Assembly: GCA_025602905.1 (NCBI GenBank)
Contig: JAHLKI010000014.1
Location: forward strand, 372,001-436,000
DNA: 64,000 bases
DNA from: Phlyctochytrium arcticum
Taxonomy: Eukaryota > Chytridiomycota > Chytridiomycetes > Chytridiales > Chytridiaceae
Reading direction: 5' to 3'
Shown here: in pieces, positions 2,206-64,000 of the stretch
Layout: the number at the start of each line of letters is the position of its first letter
Position numbering within the stretch: the first letter of the stretch is position 1
The notes under the pieces: generated by a model
Databases searched by the model: none
Told to the model about the DNA's origin: nothing
The model's input: the letters and a program-made list of their open reading frames with translations, nothing else
Translations under genes and position numbers: made by a program

Positions 2206-2622
2206 TTCGCGTTTGGCTTTCTCTAAGAGCTCTTACTAGTGTGGTTGTGCCATATTTGTTTATTCATGTATTTCTGTTCAAAGTCCCATATTTTACGTTG
2301 GTCAATGGTGGCACTGTCATGCAAATGCATATGACCGCTTTGTTTGGACAACCTGAAACAAGGCCGTGCGCCGCAAGTTTCTCGACTTTTTGAGGGTACT
2401 GACGTTTTGTTTATTTTGACCAGCATTAGCGCAAAAAGGAAAAAGGAGAATCTCTTATACTGCCAATACATTCTGGGATTGCCGATACTCAAAAAGTTGC
2501 CGTTGTTATTGTTAAAGAATTCTGTACCGTCCATTCACTGTGAACTTTTCGCCAAAGACATCTTCCACCGAGCCGGATAGGAATATTGGTTGAACGCTTC
2601 TTACGTCTGGGACGCACTTAGT
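2206..2622. other. Intergenic, no gene seen
   Basis: About 420 bp between the TRA2 stop and the PP2C start. I see no conserved coding frame. It must hold the 3' UTR of one gene and the promoter of the next. Confidence 0.5.
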
Positions 2623-4650
2623 ATGGCAGTGATGGGTCCAACAGAACCTGTAGCACTTCCTATTCTCGACACAGTCCCAACCTCTTCCGCCTACCGCTCT
2701 CCTTCGCTACATGGAAGTCCACCACCCCCACCACCCAGTGCAGCCTACTCGTCTCCAACGTCCCCTCTCGCAAACAGCTTACCACGACCCACCATAGCCA
2801 GTCCGCAAAAGAAACGTTTGAAGGTCGGCGAAGACACGAGTGGAGAGACTGTCGAGTCACCGTTGACCTCTACTTTACTGGGTGAAACGCCAGAAGGACA
2901 GGCGACAGTCAACGCGGAGGTTGCCCCTGCCGCAGAGAGTGTCGAGCATGGCAAAGGATTCGGCAGTGCGGGATGGCATCATGAGGTGGCATGGGCGGTG
3001 GCAGCAGAGAAGGGATATCGCAACAAATTTATCAACTCGTATGCCGGACCGGCTGCGCAGATCCCGATTCACCCGGACTTGGAGGATGTGTATTGGCCGG
3101 GCGAGGGCGAGACACCCACCGTTGTTGTAAAGTCACAAGAAGGAGGGGGAGAGGCCCAGGGAAGCGTGACAGCCGAGAATCAAACGCGACAAAGTAATCG
3201 ATTTGTCTTGCCCAGCGGCATGCATGTATTTATACTGGCGGACGGACATGGGGGAGTGGAAGCACCACGGTTCTTTGTGAAGCGGATAAGTTCCGAGATT
3301 CGCACGATCTTGGAGTCTCGAGATTGGGACTTTAGCGATTCTCAGCAACAATCCGATTTTCGAGCGGCCATCCACACGATTTTTCGGATTCTTGACGCTG
3401 CCTACGCATCGCGTAAAGTGGAAGAGTATCGCAAGTGGATGGATAGTGGTAGTGATGCTGCCGATCGCCCAGATGATGACGGATGTACTCTGCTGGTCAA
3501 TGTGCTCTGTGACGGCTGGCTCTGCAACATCAATGTTGGCGATTCGCGCACGATTGTGGGCACTCCCCGACGCAACGCACTCTATGGGAATTCGGGAAAC
3601 TCTCCTCAGCAGAATTGGTCGTGTTCCGACTCTTCCAATTCCAGCGCTTCTTCATTCCTCGACTTTACCCTCCCGCAGGATCCGCGGGGAAGCTGGCAGA
3701 CTATTTTTGCGTCAAGCGACCACAACATGACACACCCAGCCAAGATTCACCACATCAACGCGACAGGCGGGCAATTCGTCTATCCCTTTGGCTCATTAAA
3801 GACCGTTACCATCTATCCCTCAGAAACACCGCCCGACAAGCCCTATACCGAGTTGGCAGGAATGCGGATCTATCGCCCGCCAACCCCGCAAATAAAAGCT
3901 GTTGGAGTCTCGCATCGCCGTACACTCAACCTCTCCGCCACAATGGGCGACCTGCTTTTCAAAGTTGAGCCTGCCGTTTTGAATTGCTTGCCGGACGTGG
4001 AATTTGTGCCGTTGGATCCGCATGTGGATCATATTCTGGTCGCTGCAACGGACGGTGTATGGGATCATATGAGGGAACAGAACCCGGAAAGGCAAAGCGA
4101 GCTTGTTCTATGTTGTGTGGCGGCCTGGGTCGAAGGGATGTGGGACTGGACGGTATCGGATCCGGCTATTCCTCCTTTGAATGCTGGGGGTCCTTCTGAT
4201 CACCAAGTCATGCCATCCAATGCAAGCTCAACTTCCTCCTCATCAATCACATCGGACGCGCGTGGGCTACGGAGCACGGACGTTTCCTTTGACTCGGCCA
4301 TGATGTCGGGAGTCGGAACTGCGGTCGAAACCGGTCTTGAATCAAGTAGTCGTCATTCATCTCTCACCACAATGGACTCTTCAACATCCTTACCCCCTCC
4401 TCACCCCCAAACCCAAACCCAATCTCTCACCCTCGCTCAGCGGTTATCCCACGCAACCCGCATGCTTATCGAGCGCGAAGGACAACACCGAGCCCGGGAA
4501 CAAGAACAAACAAGACAAGGACAATTAGGGTATTCACCAGTGACCCCCGATCTCAGCCTTCGCTCTCCGCCAGAACTGTATTATGGGGGTCAGTTCCGGT
4601 ACGACGATGCAACAGCTTTTGTCTTGTATCTGAAGGCATCCAAAGCATGA
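2623..4650 (+). CDS. PP2C-family (PPM) protein phosphatase, divergent, intronless
   Basis: A single open frame. The first ATG in frame is 2623, giving 675 residues; an upstream extension would need a TTG start. PPM-family metal-site motifs are readable in order: LADGHGG (about residue 203), GWLCNINVGDSR with the conserved GDSR (about 305), VAATDGVWDH (about 475) and a terminal DDATAFVLYL in place of the usual DNxT motif. Aspartates expected to bind Mn/Mg are therefore largely present, so activity is plausible. The enzyme class dephosphorylates Ser/Thr. The N-terminus (about 110 residues) is Pro/Ser-rich and probably disordered. Long Ser/Thr/Gln-rich insertions lie between the GDSR and TDG motifs and again after TDG, making it roughly twice the size of a minimal PP2C. 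No signal peptide or membrane segment is seen. Confidence 0.85.
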   Translation: MAVMGPTEPVALPILDTVPTSSAYRSPSLHGSPPPPPPSAAYSSPTSPLANSLPRPTIASPQKKRLKVGEDTSGETVESPLTSTLLGETPEGQATVNAEVAPAAESVEHGKGFGSAGWHHEVAWAVAAEKGYRNKFINSYAGPAAQIPIHPDLEDVYWPGEGETPTVVVKSQEGGGEAQGSVTAENQTRQSNRFVLPSGMHVFILADGHGGVEAPRFFVKRISSEIRTILESRDWDFSDSQQQSDFRAAIHTIFRILDAAYASRKVEEYRKWMDSGSDAADRPDDDGCTLLVNVLCDGWLCNINVGDSRTIVGTPRRNALYGNSGNSPQQNWSCSDSSNSSASSFLDFTLPQDPRGSWQTIFASSDHNMTHPAKIHHINATGGQFVYPFGSLKTVTIYPSETPPDKPYTELAGMRIYRPPTPQIKAVGVSHRRTLNLSATMGDLLFKVEPAVLNCLPDVEFVPLDPHVDHILVAATDGVWDHMREQNPERQSELVLCCVAAWVEGMWDWTVSDPAIPPLNAGGPSDHQVMPSNASSTSSSSITSDARGLRSTDVSFDSAMMSGVGTAVETGLESSSRHSSLTTMDSSTSLPPPHPQTQTQSLTLAQRLSHATRMLIEREGQHRAREQEQTRQGQLGYSPVTPDLSLRSPPELYYGGQFRYDDATAFVLYLKASKA

Positions 4651-5501
4651 TCGTAAGCCCTACTCCTGTTCCTACATTACCCCATCCTTTGGACTCTTTG
4701 CCATTTTAAAAAAACACACTTCCCAACCCCAACCAATTTTTTTCCTTTTTGTAAAATAGACCATTCGCATGATGACATCCTGTAAAGTTTTCTTTCTTTG
4801 TGGTTTTAATGAAAGCCAAAAATCCCCCTATTTTCCTATTCAAATGTTGCTATTTTCATTTGGCGCAAGAATATTCTGTAAATTCATGTCGTTTGTTCGA
4901 AATTCGAAATAACAGTCTAAAATGCGGGTCCTTCTCATGAACGCAGTGATTTTCTTGAACAATATTTAACACATTGGCTATTTCTTCTCCCTTTCTTCTT
5001 TTCCATCCCTTGTAAGATCCCTTTTTAACGGCCTTTGTTCTGTTGAAAACCCAGGAAAAACCCAGGAAAACCCTGTTGACGAACGATGAATCAAAGTCCA
5101 TTATGCCTTTTCTGGACAAACCCTAACCGGCGCTTCACGACCCAGCGCGAACCGGCGTTCCCAAAGCTGGGTTCGAAGCCGCGGATTTCGTTGACGGATT
5201 CCACAGTTTTGCCTTGCCTGGATAACGGGGGGTAGCGATCGGGGGGCTTATTGCAACTGGGCGACGACTGGAAAGAGTACAGGGCAGGGTGCCGTGCTGC
5301 TTGGTGCAGAAGAACAAGATCGAAAGAGCGGGGACTTTCTCGAATTCAAGCGCTGGGCAATTCACAGCGATATCTTGATATCAAAGTAATATCTGCTGCT
5401 TTCTCTGGCATATCGGGTCACTGTAGATATCGCAACCGAAAGCAAGCTATCAACTCCGGGACTTTTGTGCGGGTCGGGACGGTGCATGAGCAACAGCAGC
5501 C
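4651..5501. other. Intergenic, AT-rich, no gene seen
   Basis: About 850 bp with homopolymeric A and T runs after the PP2C stop. A direct repeat of AACCCAGGAAAA occurs near 5047-5070. No frame here looks coding. The distal part carries the promoter of the next gene. Confidence 0.45.
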
Positions 5502-59214: not shown

Positions 59215-61194
59215 ATGATGCCTACGTTGTTAGCTCTTATTCTCACGATATTGTACGTTCTTCAGAACGGGGCCGTGACCGGTAAGTAACATATCATCCT
59301 GATGATACTGTTAGCACCAGTTGATTCTTGGCCCTTCAGATGCCGTCCCAAATCCAATACGTCGATCCGCTCTGACAAGCACTACACGTCCACTAAAATC
59401 AAGCCCAGGAAATCGAACTCACTATGCATCAGGCTTGCATCGCGATGGCAGTGAATTTGCCACCGCAAATTACGCTAAAAAGAGCAGCGGAAACGTAGTT
59501 GTTCTGATGCCGTACGAGCGGGCAACCAATGCATGGTCTGCGGATTTGAAAGCAGCACAGAAGGCCTGGGGAGCTGCGAATAATATCACCATCACATGGA
59601 GGGATTTTGGCCCCAGTGTGGATTATGCGGGTTACGTTGATCGGGTCATGAAAGCGTGCCAAAACGGCACCTTGGATGATTTTGATGTGATATGGCTGGA
59701 AGCTAGCTATGTTGGAGAATTGTCCGACTGCTTATTGGATTTATGGGCTTGGAATGATGCCCTTGGAGCCGATCATTCTGGGACCGTTGCGCGAGGGGGC
59801 TACATTAAGGACCGGCTAGGTATTTTCCGTACATCCGAACAAGTTAGAACACTATTTTGACTTTGGATGACAGTGGCACTTCCGGCCGAATTATCATTCG
59901 GCATATTGGCTTACAATTGGGATCTTCTCGCCACGTATGATTATCCGTACCCTCCGGAAGACATCCCCGAAATGGAGTCTATGGCTACGGCAATTATTAC
60001 TGGAGAGCGAGCAAGAGATCATTCGACATTATCTGGCTTGACCGGAGCATTCGTTGGTATGCCCAATACAATTTCTTTCCATGGCGTTTTAATAACAAAG
60101 TAACCATGAGAATAGGTGAAGATCTATCTTCTTTTGCGTACGAAATGCTAGCTTCTGTCGGTGGAAATCTGATAAACGAGACGACGGGAGTGGTTTCTGT
60201 TGCGCACACACCTGTCGCTAATCTACTTGCCCGAATGCTGATGTGGATATCCACAGGAATCATAGATCAGAATGACATTGGACAGACTACCATGGACCAA
60301 GCCATCGCCCGATGGGTCACTGGTGAAAGTGTCTTCCTACGAACAACAACTTCCAACATCCCAAAACTTATTGAAATTATGAATAGCAAGGGCCAGGATG
60401 CTTTCAATTGGGGAGTTTCGCCAGTTCCATCAGGAGAAGACCAGCGTTTGGGAAGTGGGGCAACCGAAGGGTGGTACACTGGCGTATACAAGAACTCAAA
60501 AAATAAGGGTGCTGCGCTGCGAACCGTAGAGTGGCTCACCAGTCAGTTGTATCAGGAACAGAAGATTCTCAAAGTTGGACCCAAAATGGTGGGAACATAC
60601 CCGCCATTTCTGATCAACCCCAAGATCTGTTCTGCCTACGGATCTGTTCGAGACCAGCATTTGTGTCTGGTCTATTCCCAAGTAGATTTGGTGCGCCGAC
60701 CAGTCACCGAAACGGGGCCTTTGTATCTTAATGTCTCGGCTATCTTCCAAAACTTCATGAAAGATGTTTTGATGGGCAATACTTATCCGATCACGGCGTT
60801 GAAAACTCTGGATTCTACACTACGAGTCTTGCTAGGAAACCCACCGACAGACTACTCAAGCTTGGAAATCACAGATACATCGATTGGAAAACCAGGGAAA
60901 ATCGTTCCCAAGAACATTATGACGCAGTTGACTGGACTGTTCTTTGTTGTTTCGGTCACAGCCATTGTCGTGCTGCTGTACAGGCGTAAGCGCCGTGACA
61001 ATCTCCACAAGAAACTCCGTGCTTCCGCTCAAGCTGTAGTGGAGAACACGGTCACCACTGAAGGGGGCGTCCCTCCGGAAATGGAACAAGTTGAAAAGCA
61101 ACGGCAAGCTGACAAAGGAAAGGGCGTGGCAAACGACGACTCATATGAGGAAGACGCCTCTCTAATTCAAAAGTCCGAAAAGATTGAATTATAA
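59215..61194 (+). CDS. Membrane-anchored bacterial-type solute-binding protein, receptor-like
   Basis: Four exons, 59215-59281, 59340-59819, 59874-60056 and 60116-61194, give 602 residues. The signal peptide (MMPTLLALILTILYVLQNGAVT) is exon 1. An ectodomain of about 490 residues has the two-lobed type-2 periplasmic-binding fold pattern: VVVLMPYERATNAWSADLKAA, DFDVIWLEASYVGEL, VALPAELSFGILAYNWDLL, FAYEMLASVGGNLINE, ARWVTGESVFLR, NWGVSPVPSGE and GWYTGVYKNSKNKGAALRTVEWL. A single helix follows (LTGLFFVVSVTAIVVLLYRRKRR, about 514-536), then a cytosolic acidic/Lys tail of about 65 residues. In bacteria such domains capture sugars or other solutes for ABC importers. Here no transporter is adjacent, so a sensing role is inferred. 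Horizontal origin is possible but old, since it holds three introns. Confidence 0.8.
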
Positions 61195-61238: not shown

Positions 61239-62000
61239 TCAAAGATGTGAACTCATGAGAGCTTTTTCGGACTCGATCAACCCCGTCATCATCCCCACTC
61301 CACTGGCTCTTCTTTCCTCATCACTTCCGATGGCAATTGGATTGATTCCGCTCAATGCCAGAGCCTTGGCGAATGGGAGGGTTTTGCCAGACTTTTCTTT
61401 AAACACAAGTTTGGAGGTCGCCACTGCATATATGTGCTCTTCGCCGTCTTTCAATGCAATAAACTTGTGACGCAGGTAAATCCATTTTCTAAGAATTAAC
61501 ATTAGGCAAAGATGACGGTGAGTAGGCAGCCGCTCCCCAACATACTCCTCGTATCCTAGCAGATCCGTATCTATCACATATTGTTGGAAAGGTTTAAGCT
61601 CCCTTTTGAACCAGATCTGTACGCCTGCATTCATCAACCTATATTGCTTGTTGAACCTCAATCCGAATAGGCGTATGGTCCAGTTCGTCCGCGCAAAATC
61701 CAAGTGTTTGTTGTAACTGCTGTTATTCATATGGCCATTCCAGTCCATATCGTCTAGCCACACCCGATACGATTGACGAAGTACGGTCCATATCGTCGCT
61801 GCAGGCTTTGAAGTATGTAGACGGTTTGCCTTGAGAACCGCGGTAAAGATCCGGAAATGGTGCACAAGCGGAAAAGATCGAATTTGAAGAATGACAAGGA
61901 GAATAACTAGATATTGCAGACGGCCAGTGAGGAAAGGTCGGAGAAGCTTGAGTAGAATCCCATTCGGAGCTGTTGAGTCCGTTCCAGTCGCGACAGCCAT
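61239..62000 (-). CDS. THEM6-like hotdog thioesterase with N-terminal membrane helix
   Basis: Two exons (62000-61546 and 61488-61239) give 234 residues. The N-terminus has a hydrophobic helix (LQYLVILLVILQI). The signature SYRVWLDDMDWNGHMNNSSYNKHLDFAR is that of THEM6-type proteins, with the hotdog-fold DMDWNGHMNN segment. The 57-nt intron (61545-61489, GTATGT...TTCTTAG) is a multiple of three with no stop in frame, so the unspliced message is also open and adds 19 residues. The spliced form restores the conserved GYEEKWIYLRHKFIAL and is preferred. THEM6 in animals is an ER-membrane protein linked to lipid homeostasis; acyl-CoA hydrolysis is inferred from the fold. Confidence 0.82.
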   Translation of the reverse strand: MAVATGTDSTAPNGILLKLLRPFLTGRLQYLVILLVILQIRSFPLVHHFRIFTAVLKANRLHTSKPAATIWTVLRQSYRVWLDDMDWNGHMNNSSYNKHLDFARTNWTIRLFGLRFNKQYRLMNAGVQIWFKRELKPFQQYVIDTDLLGYEEYVGERLPTHRHLCLMLILRKWIYLRHKFIALKDGEEHIYAVATSKLVFKEKSGKTLPFAKALALSGINPIAIGSDEERRASGVGMMTGLIESEKALMSSHL

Positions 62001-62223
62001 CTTGTCGCTGATCTGGTCGTCTGCAAACCCCAGTGCAAACCCGGGGCTCCCGACTGACAGCTTCTCAAATTTTTACAGAAAGAAAGCTGGCTATGTAAAA
62101 GGGCTGTCCACCGAGAAACCCCCGACATACATTCAGCCTTTCTCTCATCTCTCGTTTACTCTCCATTCTTGACTTTCTTCACTGAGAGACGTACTGTGCG
62201 CACGCTAAACCATTCGGGCATCA
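62001..62223. other. Short divergent spacer
   Basis: About 220 bp between the THEM6-like gene and the Fanzor-like element. The boundary of the element cannot be recognised by eye. Confidence 0.3.
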
Positions 62224-64000
62224 ATGCCGCGTATTACCGGCTTGCGTGAGATGGTACGAGAAAGAGAAGTTCCCCAGTATCTCTCGGGACCACCCTTCAC
62301 CGGCCCCACAACCCAACACATCGACGTCAAACGAGCAGCTGGAAGCTGATGCGCAACTTGCACATCAACTCCAGGCGCAGGAAGCAAGAATGTCGTCAGG
62401 TATGTGTCCACAGACTCTTTGATTGATTACCATGTTCAATCAACTTATTCATGTCGTTTTGCTTTCTTTAGAGCGCTTTTATGGCACGAAGAGTCGGCGT
62501 CTGCCCAGAGTCGGCCCATCCGAAGAACTCGTCGCGTCCCCCGACCAGCTCCAGGCTACAGAAGGCAAGAAAGGTCTATGTGATTGTCGGCTGCTCTATC
62601 CCGGCAAAATCATCCCGATCCATTACCATTCAACGCAAAAACAATGCCTGTTGCACGGCAAATCCGCAGCGGCGAAGAGAGAACTCCAACGCCGGATCGC
62701 GGAGCTACGGATCGAGTCACTACCCGACAGCAGCGACAGCATGACCATACAAGCCGATTTGCCCGCCCTGCCAGCAGCACGACCAACCACTTCTTTTTGC
62801 AAGACATGCACAAGTCGTGGTCACCCTCCCAACGTCGCCCACCACACCCGGACATCCAGCAAGCTGTGCCCGTACCACAAGCCCAAATTGGCCTCAAGAA
62901 AGCAGAAGAAAGCTATCTCGTACTCGACGCGAACGGTCAAGATGGGACTTCTGGGATTCCTACGGGCGCCACAACTTTTGCCGGTCATTCGGGATTTCGT
63001 AGGTCGTATGACGAGGATTCATTTCGAGGCCGCTCGCCTGGCCAACCTCTACGTCATCGACCAGCTCGAACAAGGGAACGTTCTGGGTGATCTGAGCTAC
63101 AACCCCTTTATGCGCCAGACATTCCAGGGCGTTCTCTGTGACTCGGAAGGCGCTCCCAAAGTTGTGGCCAACAGCAGCCTTCTGGATACGCGCGACCGGC
63201 TTTATGCCCCTCAACGGCCCGCGGGATTTGCGTGAAATGATGGGGGATACCTTGGCAACTGCATCTCCCTGGCAGCGAAAACCTATGCAGCAAATTGTCA
63301 CAATCATGTGGTACTGCAATGGGATTCGCGCATGGTCAGGTGGTGGGCGGCCGAGCTGTAATTGCGGATCAAATTTCTCTCGGCCAAGCAGCGTAGGCGG
63401 GTGGGCGAAGCGTTCCTGGCTGGCAGTATCGATCCGCCAATGTTTACAAAGTTGACACCATGGCAGCAATGTATGCTGGCCATCGTCCACCGATCACTGG
63501 CCCGTCAATGCCAGGACGAGTTCATTGGTGGAATCCAGCTGCCAATGGACATCAGTGAGTTCGCGGACAAGTGCTGGGAGTTGCTGCCTTCGCTGTGGAG
63601 GTTGAATCGGTTCCTGGAGGCCAACGGCAGGAGAGGGTTTACAATGCTTCCGCTGACTTCGGCACGGGCCCAATTTGTGGAGTTTGACACCGACGCATTG
63701 TATTACTTGCTTCGGGCAAATGACATCAATATGCCCCGTATGGATCAATTTAGACTGGCCTCGTCAAACCCTGGTCATCTTCCTCCTGCCGGCACCTACC
63801 CCCTACCCACTCAACCTGATGCCCTGGTCTGCGATCATTGGTGGTTTTGGGCGTTCCACCTGGGCAAAGTGATGACGGCGGCCGATACGGCTGGACAACG
63901 CCGATTCGCGTGCTCGTTGGCTACCGACGGGATGAGCGTCAGCGTCAGCGTGCAAGTGGCCAAGCCCAAGTTCCATCCAAACCCCGTCAACGAGTACGGG
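62224..64000 (+). pseudogene. Fanzor-like (eukaryotic TnpB-like) nuclease gene, interrupted and cut by window end
   Basis: From 62474 one frame runs to the window edge (509 codons), broken only by TGA at 63233-63235 and TAA at 63359-63361. It encodes a Cys/His cluster (SFCKTCTSRGHPPNVAHH, then LCPYH), FVGRMTRIHFEAARLANLYV, SLAAKTYAANCHNHVVLQW, RRGFTMLPLTSARAQFVEFD and RRFACSLATDGMSVSVSV. This order fits a large fungal family that I believe is Fanzor1. Its RuvC-I motif (DPG) would lie just past 64000. An upstream exon ends at 62399 (GTATGT donor) and joins at 62472. That exon reads NEQLEADAQLAHQLQAQEARM but is one base out of frame with the best start ATG at 62224. Conserved sequence continues straight through both stops, so they look like nonsense mutations. 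Other candidates: another transposon-associated family. Confidence 0.55.

What the first reader, a model, noticed from the sequence alone, without database searches (positions are those of the whole stretch)
62224..64000. Fanzor-like RNA-guided nuclease gene at the window edge
The frame has the N-terminal Cys/His cluster, the LANLYVIDQL helix region, YAANCHNHVVLQW and the TDGMSVSVSV block that in TnpB/Fanzor proteins precedes the RuvC-I catalytic Asp. Fanzor proteins are known from chytrids and other fungi as transposon-carried, RNA-guided DNA nucleases. The copy lies next to a thioesterase gene, and its guide-RNA-encoding 3' end would be just outside the window. The family assignment rests on recalled family patterns, not on a search.
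Basis: partly seen in the sequence, partly recalled or inferred. Interest (0 to 1): 0.85.

Follow-up and report, generated by a model that had tools for sequence, protein, structure and literature searches.

The report
Decayed Fanzor nuclease gene in chytrid
A broken remnant of a Fanzor, a transposon-borne RNA-guided DNA-cutting enzyme of the kind already known from chytrid fungi, sits at the window's edge; it is a genomic fossil, but its front end is shared with very different Fanzors of the same genome, which hints that these elements swap parts.

Summary
Four relatives of 685-715 aa with the TnpB/Fanzor zinc ribbon and RuvC motifs match the locus at 48-50% identity (E 7.0e-120 to 9.7e-127). 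The genome continues past 64000 and shows a RuvC-I motif (GVDPGR; Asp codon at 64056-64058), but only across a frameshift. Two in-frame stops lie inside the window (63233-63235, 63359-63361), a third at 64140-64142. Similarity ends near 64229, so RuvC-II, zinc ribbon and RuvC-III are gone. It is a decayed, 3'-truncated Fanzor1-type copy in a genome with 56 Fanzor-like matching stretches; many partial copies are also published for Spizellomyces punctatus. The unexpected feature is the 5' part. Leader, exon 1, intron and a Cys/His module resemble, as DNA, those of a SpuFz1-like copy in the same genome, while the nuclease bodies show no DNA similarity. None of 28 other fetched gene models matches the module convincingly (best E 0.013). 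This suggests exchange of 5' cassettes between Fanzor lineages. Interest is modest: an ordinary fossil with one testable evolutionary lead.

The parts
62089..62188 (+). Leader (taken as non-coding) that resembles the leaders of two SpuFz1-like Fanzor copies (C16, C3)
   Evidence: blastn 66% over 385 columns for leader to intron against C16; local score 63 against a maximum of 27 in 200 mononucleotide shuffles (C16), 51 against 23 (C3)
62189..62399 (+). Exon 1: Cys/His-rich peptide (CAHAKPFGHQCRVLPACVRWYEKEKFPS...). The codon aligned with the start codon of the C16 and C3 copies is not an ATG
   Evidence: (64% over residues 2-56 of the C3 exon-1 peptide, E 7.0e-11)
62400..62471 (+). Intron (GTATGT...TTTAG), similar to the intron of the C16 copy
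   Evidence: shuffle test 43 against a maximum of 27 for C16, but not significant for C3 (18, reached by 63 of 200 shuffles)
62472..62779 (+). Exon 2, 5' part: N-terminal module CxC-LL...IHY...CLLHGKS (62558-62703) and linker; DNA similarity to C16 and C3 ends about 62676-62703
   Evidence: 56% over 50 aa with the C3 copy, E 6.7e-14 in a three-sequence comparison; seven module loci in the genome; invariant C, C, H, C among seven
62780..64000 (+). Fanzor core homologous to residues 14-449 of P0005 (second Cys/His cluster, REC-like part, TDG block); similarity continues outside the window to about 64229, P0005 residue 515
   Evidence: 49%, E 2.7e-124; 206 of 430 to 219 of 439 aligned residues identical with four homologs
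63233..63235 (+). In-frame TGA at a column where 4 of 4 homologs have a residue
63359..63361 (+). In-frame TAA at a column where 4 of 4 homologs have a residue
61239..62000 (-). Neighbouring thioesterase-like gene, head to head with the remnant; open frame, not part of it
   Evidence: PF13279 E 7.5e-15; frame with a methionine at 62000

Best explanation
It is a dead, 3'-truncated copy of a Fanzor1-type gene. Fanzors are eukaryotic relatives of TnpB that bind an RNA made from the end of their transposon and cut matching DNA with a RuvC domain. Shown: homology along leader, exon 1, intron, Cys/His module, REC-like part and RuvC-I; at least four breaks of the frame; absence of the rest. Inferred: an intact ancestor worked as an RNA-guided nuclease that helped its element persist. 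The copy came to lie about 90 bp upstream of a thioesterase gene, was broken, lost its 3' half and guide-RNA end, and now does nothing as a nuclease. Also inferred: before its death its lineage had received, or given, a 5' cassette (leader, exon 1, intron, CCHC module) in common with SpuFz1-like Fanzors of the same genome.
For: Homologs P0002-P0005 (E 7.0e-120 to 9.7e-127): 4 of 4 carry PF07282 over its cut-off and, in order, a [LVI]D[PL]GR motif, DEYRTSxxCxxC and NRD. A profile of them together with the database model of this locus finds SpuFz1 (8gkh) at E 4.7e-8, then a TnpB-like chain (8hr5, 0.003) and LaTranC (0.017, 0.018). Locus coverage stops at profile position 510 of about 685. Three in-frame stops fall at columns where 4 of 4 homologs have a residue. 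P0001, the database gene model of this very locus (contig length 771028, as C14), skips the stops with introns whose middle exon is in a frame that does not align with the homologs. 5' similarity without core similarity.
Against: No Pfam family matches the four window frames scanned, and neither window piece alone reaches a Fanzor in the PDB; the assignment runs through intermediates. Single-base assembly errors could mimic one or two of the breaks, but not the loss of about 170 C-terminal residues. The AlphaFold models were too poor to use (mean pLDDT 38.0 and 54.9).
Confidence: 0.95

Rival explanations
1. A working Fanzor gene whose stops are spliced out as introns, as the database gene model P0001 assumes (500 aa).
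For: P0001 exists as a predicted protein for this locus; an intron-like stretch does occur at 62400-62471.
Against: The model's middle exon is read in a frame that does not align with the homologs, whereas the unspliced frame aligns across both stops. The model ends before RuvC-I, and no C-terminal half is found at the locus.
Confidence: 0.03
2. A fragment kept by the host for another use, for example a nuclease-free DNA- or RNA-binding protein made of the N-terminal modules and REC-like part.
For: The first piece alone, 62423-63232, is a stop-free frame of 270 codons holding both Cys/His clusters; nuclease-dead derivatives of TnpB are known (recalled, no call).
Against: The aligned start codon is not an ATG, and breaks lie along the length. 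0 of the 4 other proteins is a fragment. No expression data.
Confidence: 0.03
3. The shared 5' part is not exchanged but inherited from the common ancestor of the lineages and conserved by selection.
For: The third group (C13 twice, C2, C56) shares the module as protein but only short DNA stretches with C3 and no DNA match with the window cassette, which fits an older origin for that group. One S. punctatus model, P0024, gives a marginal module match (E 0.013, 6.4 bits).
Against: Between window and C16 leader and intron are still recognisable as DNA, while the coding cores are not (25 against shuffles up to 30). 28 of 28 other gene models show no convincing module, though some may lack 5' exons.
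Confidence: 0.3

Closest known systems
Unnamed Fanzor proteins P0002-P0005 (685-715 aa, from public assemblies, no usable name)
   Same: 48-50% identity over the REC-like part up to the TDG block, and 28-31 of 64 residues around RuvC-I; same second Cys/His cluster
   Different: They are full length with PF07282 and all RuvC motifs, and begin with a short basic N-terminus instead of exon 1 and CLLHGKS module
SpuFz1, Fanzor1 of Spizellomyces punctatus (PDB 8gkh; P0009)
   Same: Same superfamily: the A1 profile matches it at E 4.7e-8 over TDG block, RuvC and zinc-ribbon region. Its genome holds 42 loci with full-length (19) or partial Fz genes (passages of PMC10432273)
   Different: About 25% identity over 244 aa to the window's subfamily (P0005 against P0009); SpuFz1 starts with a short basic stretch and shows no module
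C3 copy of the same genome (L032, 766-codon open frame, SpuFz1-like)
   Same: Similar leader, exon 1 and CLLHGKS module
   Different: Nuclease body is SpuFz1-like (565-residue part: E 5.5e-100 to 8gkh) with all RuvC motifs present; no detectable DNA similarity to the window's core

Membership tests
Fanzor1 (TnpB/Fanzor superfamily; motif D-X(125,275)-[TS][TS]XX-C4-X(5,50)-RD, passages of PMC3627910) | RuvC-I catalytic Asp | tested here: met
   GVDPGR at 64050-64067, after a frameshift and outside the window
Fanzor1 | RuvC-II acidic residue | tested here: not met
   No match beyond P0005 residue 515 at this locus; present in P0002-P0005 (DEYRTS)
Fanzor1 | [TS][TS]xx plus C4 zinc ribbon (PF07282) | tested here: not met
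   0 of the 15 PF07282 matches of the genome lies here; present in 4 of 4 of P0002-P0005
Fanzor1 | Final RD (RuvC-III) | tested here: not met
Fanzor1 | Homology over the N-terminal half and TDG block to full-length Fanzors | tested here: met
   48-50% identity over 430-439 aligned residues; E 7.0e-120 to 9.7e-127
Fanzor1 | Intact reading frame | tested here: not met
   Stops at 63233, 63359 and 64140, and a frameshift at about 64031-64037
Fanzor1 | Guide RNA and element ends 3' of the gene | tested here: inconclusive
   The right-end motif of the SpuFz1-like copies is not found in L009; the end of the window's own subfamily is unknown
Fanzor1 | RNA-guided DNA cleavage | not testable with these tools
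   bench assay; not expected of a truncated copy

The most novel reading that the evidence does not exclude
In this chytrid genome a 5' cassette, made of leader, small Cys/His exon, intron and a CxC...HY...CLLHGKS module, has been exchanged between Fanzor lineages whose nuclease bodies are only about 25% alike. Fanzor elements would then be modular: promoter and N-terminal adapter are traded independently of the RNA-guided nuclease. The adapter could be a zinc-binding part that ties different nucleases to one host factor, one guide-RNA pathway or one transposon family.
Probability: 0.55. Interest if true: 0.5.

Novelty: new member of a known kind. Interest (0 to 1): 0.3.

Why it matters
As a fossil it matters little: chytrid genomes with many partial Fanzors are published. 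Automatic annotation has turned it into a 500-aa protein whose introns skip the stops (P0001), a trap for Fanzor mining. The shared 5' cassette matters more. If Fanzors swap leaders and N-terminal modules, the way these nucleases are expressed and attached to different transposons becomes testable, and the module is a candidate for the host- or element-specific part of Fanzor function.

Tried and rejected
Pfam on four window frames: nothing. PDB sequence search with two window pieces alone: chance hits only. A database search scored on the 5' part alone (residues 1-120 of an 826-residue query): 45 candidates, none at E up to 0.1, so the module is either new or too short for the word filter. 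Viral contigs, scanned with two peptide patterns: 45 pattern matches, none a relative. Structure prediction of P0005 and of the module: mean pLDDT 38.0 and 54.9, so no fold search was made. The SpuFz1-like right-end motif next to the window copy: not found. I considered that the CKTC cluster of the core and the CLLHGKS module are duplicates of one domain: one weak match, E 0.018 in a three-sequence comparison; left open. The first alignment of the lesions used a wrong frame for the long piece and was redone; the DNA shuffle tests do not depend on it. Those shuffles keep base composition, not dinucleotides.

Full report
WHAT IS THERE. The window is G000:C14:372001-436000 of a 31.5 Mb, 91-contig genome. 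I fetched C14:432001-441500 as locus L009, so window position p is L009 position p minus 60000. It is interrupted by TGA at 63233-63235 and TAA at 63359-63361. The quoted motifs are all present. YAANCHNHVVLQW lies between the two stops.

PAST THE EDGE. The first phase ends in a stop at 64055-64057. A shifted phase reads NDRVIGVDPGRATLFTGVYDDDG..., with the RuvC-I Asp codon at 64056-64058, then a TGA at 64140-64142 and about 24 more alignable residues. A 45-bp stretch then repeats, at 84% identity, the block just before the frameshift (L009 3983-4027 and 4216-4260), and similarity ends (P0005 residue 515).

FAMILY. A search with the read-through (X at the stops) against 5.8 billion proteins found five proteins at E up to 0.01 among 7990 scored candidates. 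P0001 is the database's own model of this locus. P0002-P0005 (685-715 aa) match at E 7.0e-120 to 9.7e-127. 4 of 4 carry PF07282 over its cut-off and a Fanzor motif series: [LVI]D[PL]GR, DEYRTSxxCxxC, NRD. One of them, P0004, reads LDLGR where the other three read LDPGR. With P0001 they form profile A1, whose best PDB match is SpuFz1 (8gkh, E 4.7e-8, over TDG block, RuvC and zinc-ribbon region), then a TnpB-like transposase (8hr5, E 0.003), LaTranC (0.017, 0.018) and a chance-level chain (0.75). In the other direction, a profile of P0002-P0005 matches the L009 pieces at E 3.3e-56, 7e-17, 2.1e-71, 2.9e-6 and 1.1e-3, covering profile positions 18-510 of about 685. Identity is 206 of 430 to 219 of 439 aligned residues for the first piece and 28 to 31 of 64 for the second.

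IT IS DEAD. Each of the three in-frame stops aligns with a residue in 4 of 4 homologs. The codon aligned with the start codon of the C16 and C3 copies is not an ATG. The part for RuvC-II, zinc ribbon and RuvC-III is not found at the locus: 0 of the genome's 15 PF07282 matches lies here, and P0005 residues 516-687 are unmatched. P0001 avoids the stops by introns whose middle exon is in a phase that does not align with the homologs.

GENOMIC SETTING. P0005 matches 56 stretches of this genome at E up to 0.001; this locus counts as two of them, and other genes also count more than once. Other lineages have long open frames, for example 724 codons in three places. Among 24 relatives of the C3 copy at E up to 1e-10 the named ones come from Gaertneriomyces, Fimicolochytrium, Spizellomyces, Phlyctochytrium and Powellomyces. 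The source is therefore most likely a spizellomycetalean chytrid (inference). Published work reports 42 loci with full-length (19) or partial Fz genes in S. punctatus, and ghost loci that keep the guide RNA without the protein (passages of PMC10432273). A decayed copy is thus expected.

THE 5' CASSETTE. The similarity of exon 1 and exon 2 to other copies does not follow the nuclease core. The CLLHGKS module occurs at seven places (a lower bound by the tool's own note): C3 and C16 (SpuFz1-like cores; C3 has a 766-codon open frame with all RuvC motifs), the window, and four copies of a third group (C13 twice, C2, C56). Of these four, the cores of three are matched by P0005 or its profile, one of them (C13:321k) only at E 0.002. 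C56 is matched by neither, but is 97% identical in DNA to C13:393k over 2.7 kb. An eighth, decayed trace is in L043, a second relative of the window copy. Exon 1 occurs at seven places, one of them (C9:732959, L059) a SpuFz1-like copy in which I found no module.

At DNA level window and C16 align at 66% over leader, exon 1 and intron, and at 70% over the module; window and C3 at 65% and 67% over shorter stretches. Each of the four parts beats all of 200 shuffles against C16. Against C3 the leader, exon 1 and module do, but the intron does not (63 of 200 shuffles reach its score). The core DNA does not exceed shuffles in either (9 of 30 and 10 of 30 reach it). Searched against 27 fetched loci, the window cassette finds DNA matches in three: L033 (C16), L032 (C3) and L043; the third group is not among them. 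At protein level the module is 56% identical to C3 over 50 aa (E 6.7e-14), while the window's core pieces give no convincing match to C3 (best E 0.018, a Cys/His stretch against the module); P0005 and C3 share 23% over 188 aa of RuvC.

A profile of the module matches 1 of 29 fetched proteins convincingly, P0001; the next is P0024, a S. punctatus protein, at E 0.013 and 6.4 bits. Caveat: gene models can miss 5' exons, and P0006 looks cut at its start. SpuFz1 itself is described as a single ORF in an element of about 2.1 kb (passages of PMC3627910 and PMC10432273), so its lack of the module is probably real.

READING. The plain statement is a Fanzor fossil. The bolder one is that leader and N-terminal module form a cassette exchanged between Fanzor lineages. 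Common inheritance remains possible, especially for the third group. Invariant C, C, H and C in the module suggest zinc binding (inference, since the model is poor).

LITERATURE. The searches 'Fanzor' (82 papers, 40 listed), 'Fanzor + chytrid + Spizellomyces' (1 paper), 'Fanzor + Chytridiomycota' (0) and 'Fanzor + N-terminal domain + zinc + fungi' (2) showed no description of such a shared module in the titles and abstract starts listed; 42 of the 82 Fanzor papers were not listed. Of PMC10432273, PMC3627910, PMC11423790 and PMC10711439 I saw passages only. PMC3627910 states that Fanzor N-terminal regions are highly variable and that Fanzor1 is captured by several transposon superfamilies, so an extra N-terminal part is not in itself a surprise.

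Noticed in passing
L032 (G000:C3:1581000-1588500), 2437-4737 minus strand: A SpuFz1-like Fanzor with a 766-codon open frame, upstream exons and all RuvC motifs; a candidate intact copy. A right-end motif GTGCGAAAGCACTCCTTCATTACTTGTA recurs, with up to 3 substitutions, in the SpuFz1-like copies L032, L033, L045 and L059.
   Followed up: partly
L014 (G000:C2:590500-596500), 784-2208 and 3238-4302 plus strand: An NDC10_II frame (PF16787, E 1.5e-39; recalled as related to Crypton-type recombinases) lies 1 kb upstream of a 354-codon frame holding the RuvC half of a Fanzor: possibly an element that carries a Fanzor.
   Followed up: no
L011 and L012 (G000:C8:349k and 379k): Two copies of another Fanzor lineage, 98% alike over 235 aa, one with a 690-codon frame: apparently recent multiplication.
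   Followed up: no
L035 (G000:C24:314985-316629): The same Fanzor fragment occurs twice as an inverted pair about 1.4 kb apart.
   Followed up: no
L009 3983-4027 and 4216-4260: A 45-bp direct repeat (84%) brackets the RuvC-I remnant; it may mark the rearrangement that removed the 3' half.
   Followed up: partly
window 59315-61194 plus strand: Two frames resembling a bacterial-type extracellular solute-binding protein (PF01547, E 1.1e-5 for the second; PF13416 below cut-off for the first), with a hydrophobic stretch near the C-terminus seen by eye.
   Followed up: no
database protein P0001 (model of this locus): Automatic annotation of the pseudogene as a 500-aa protein with introns that skip the stop codons.
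   Followed up: yes
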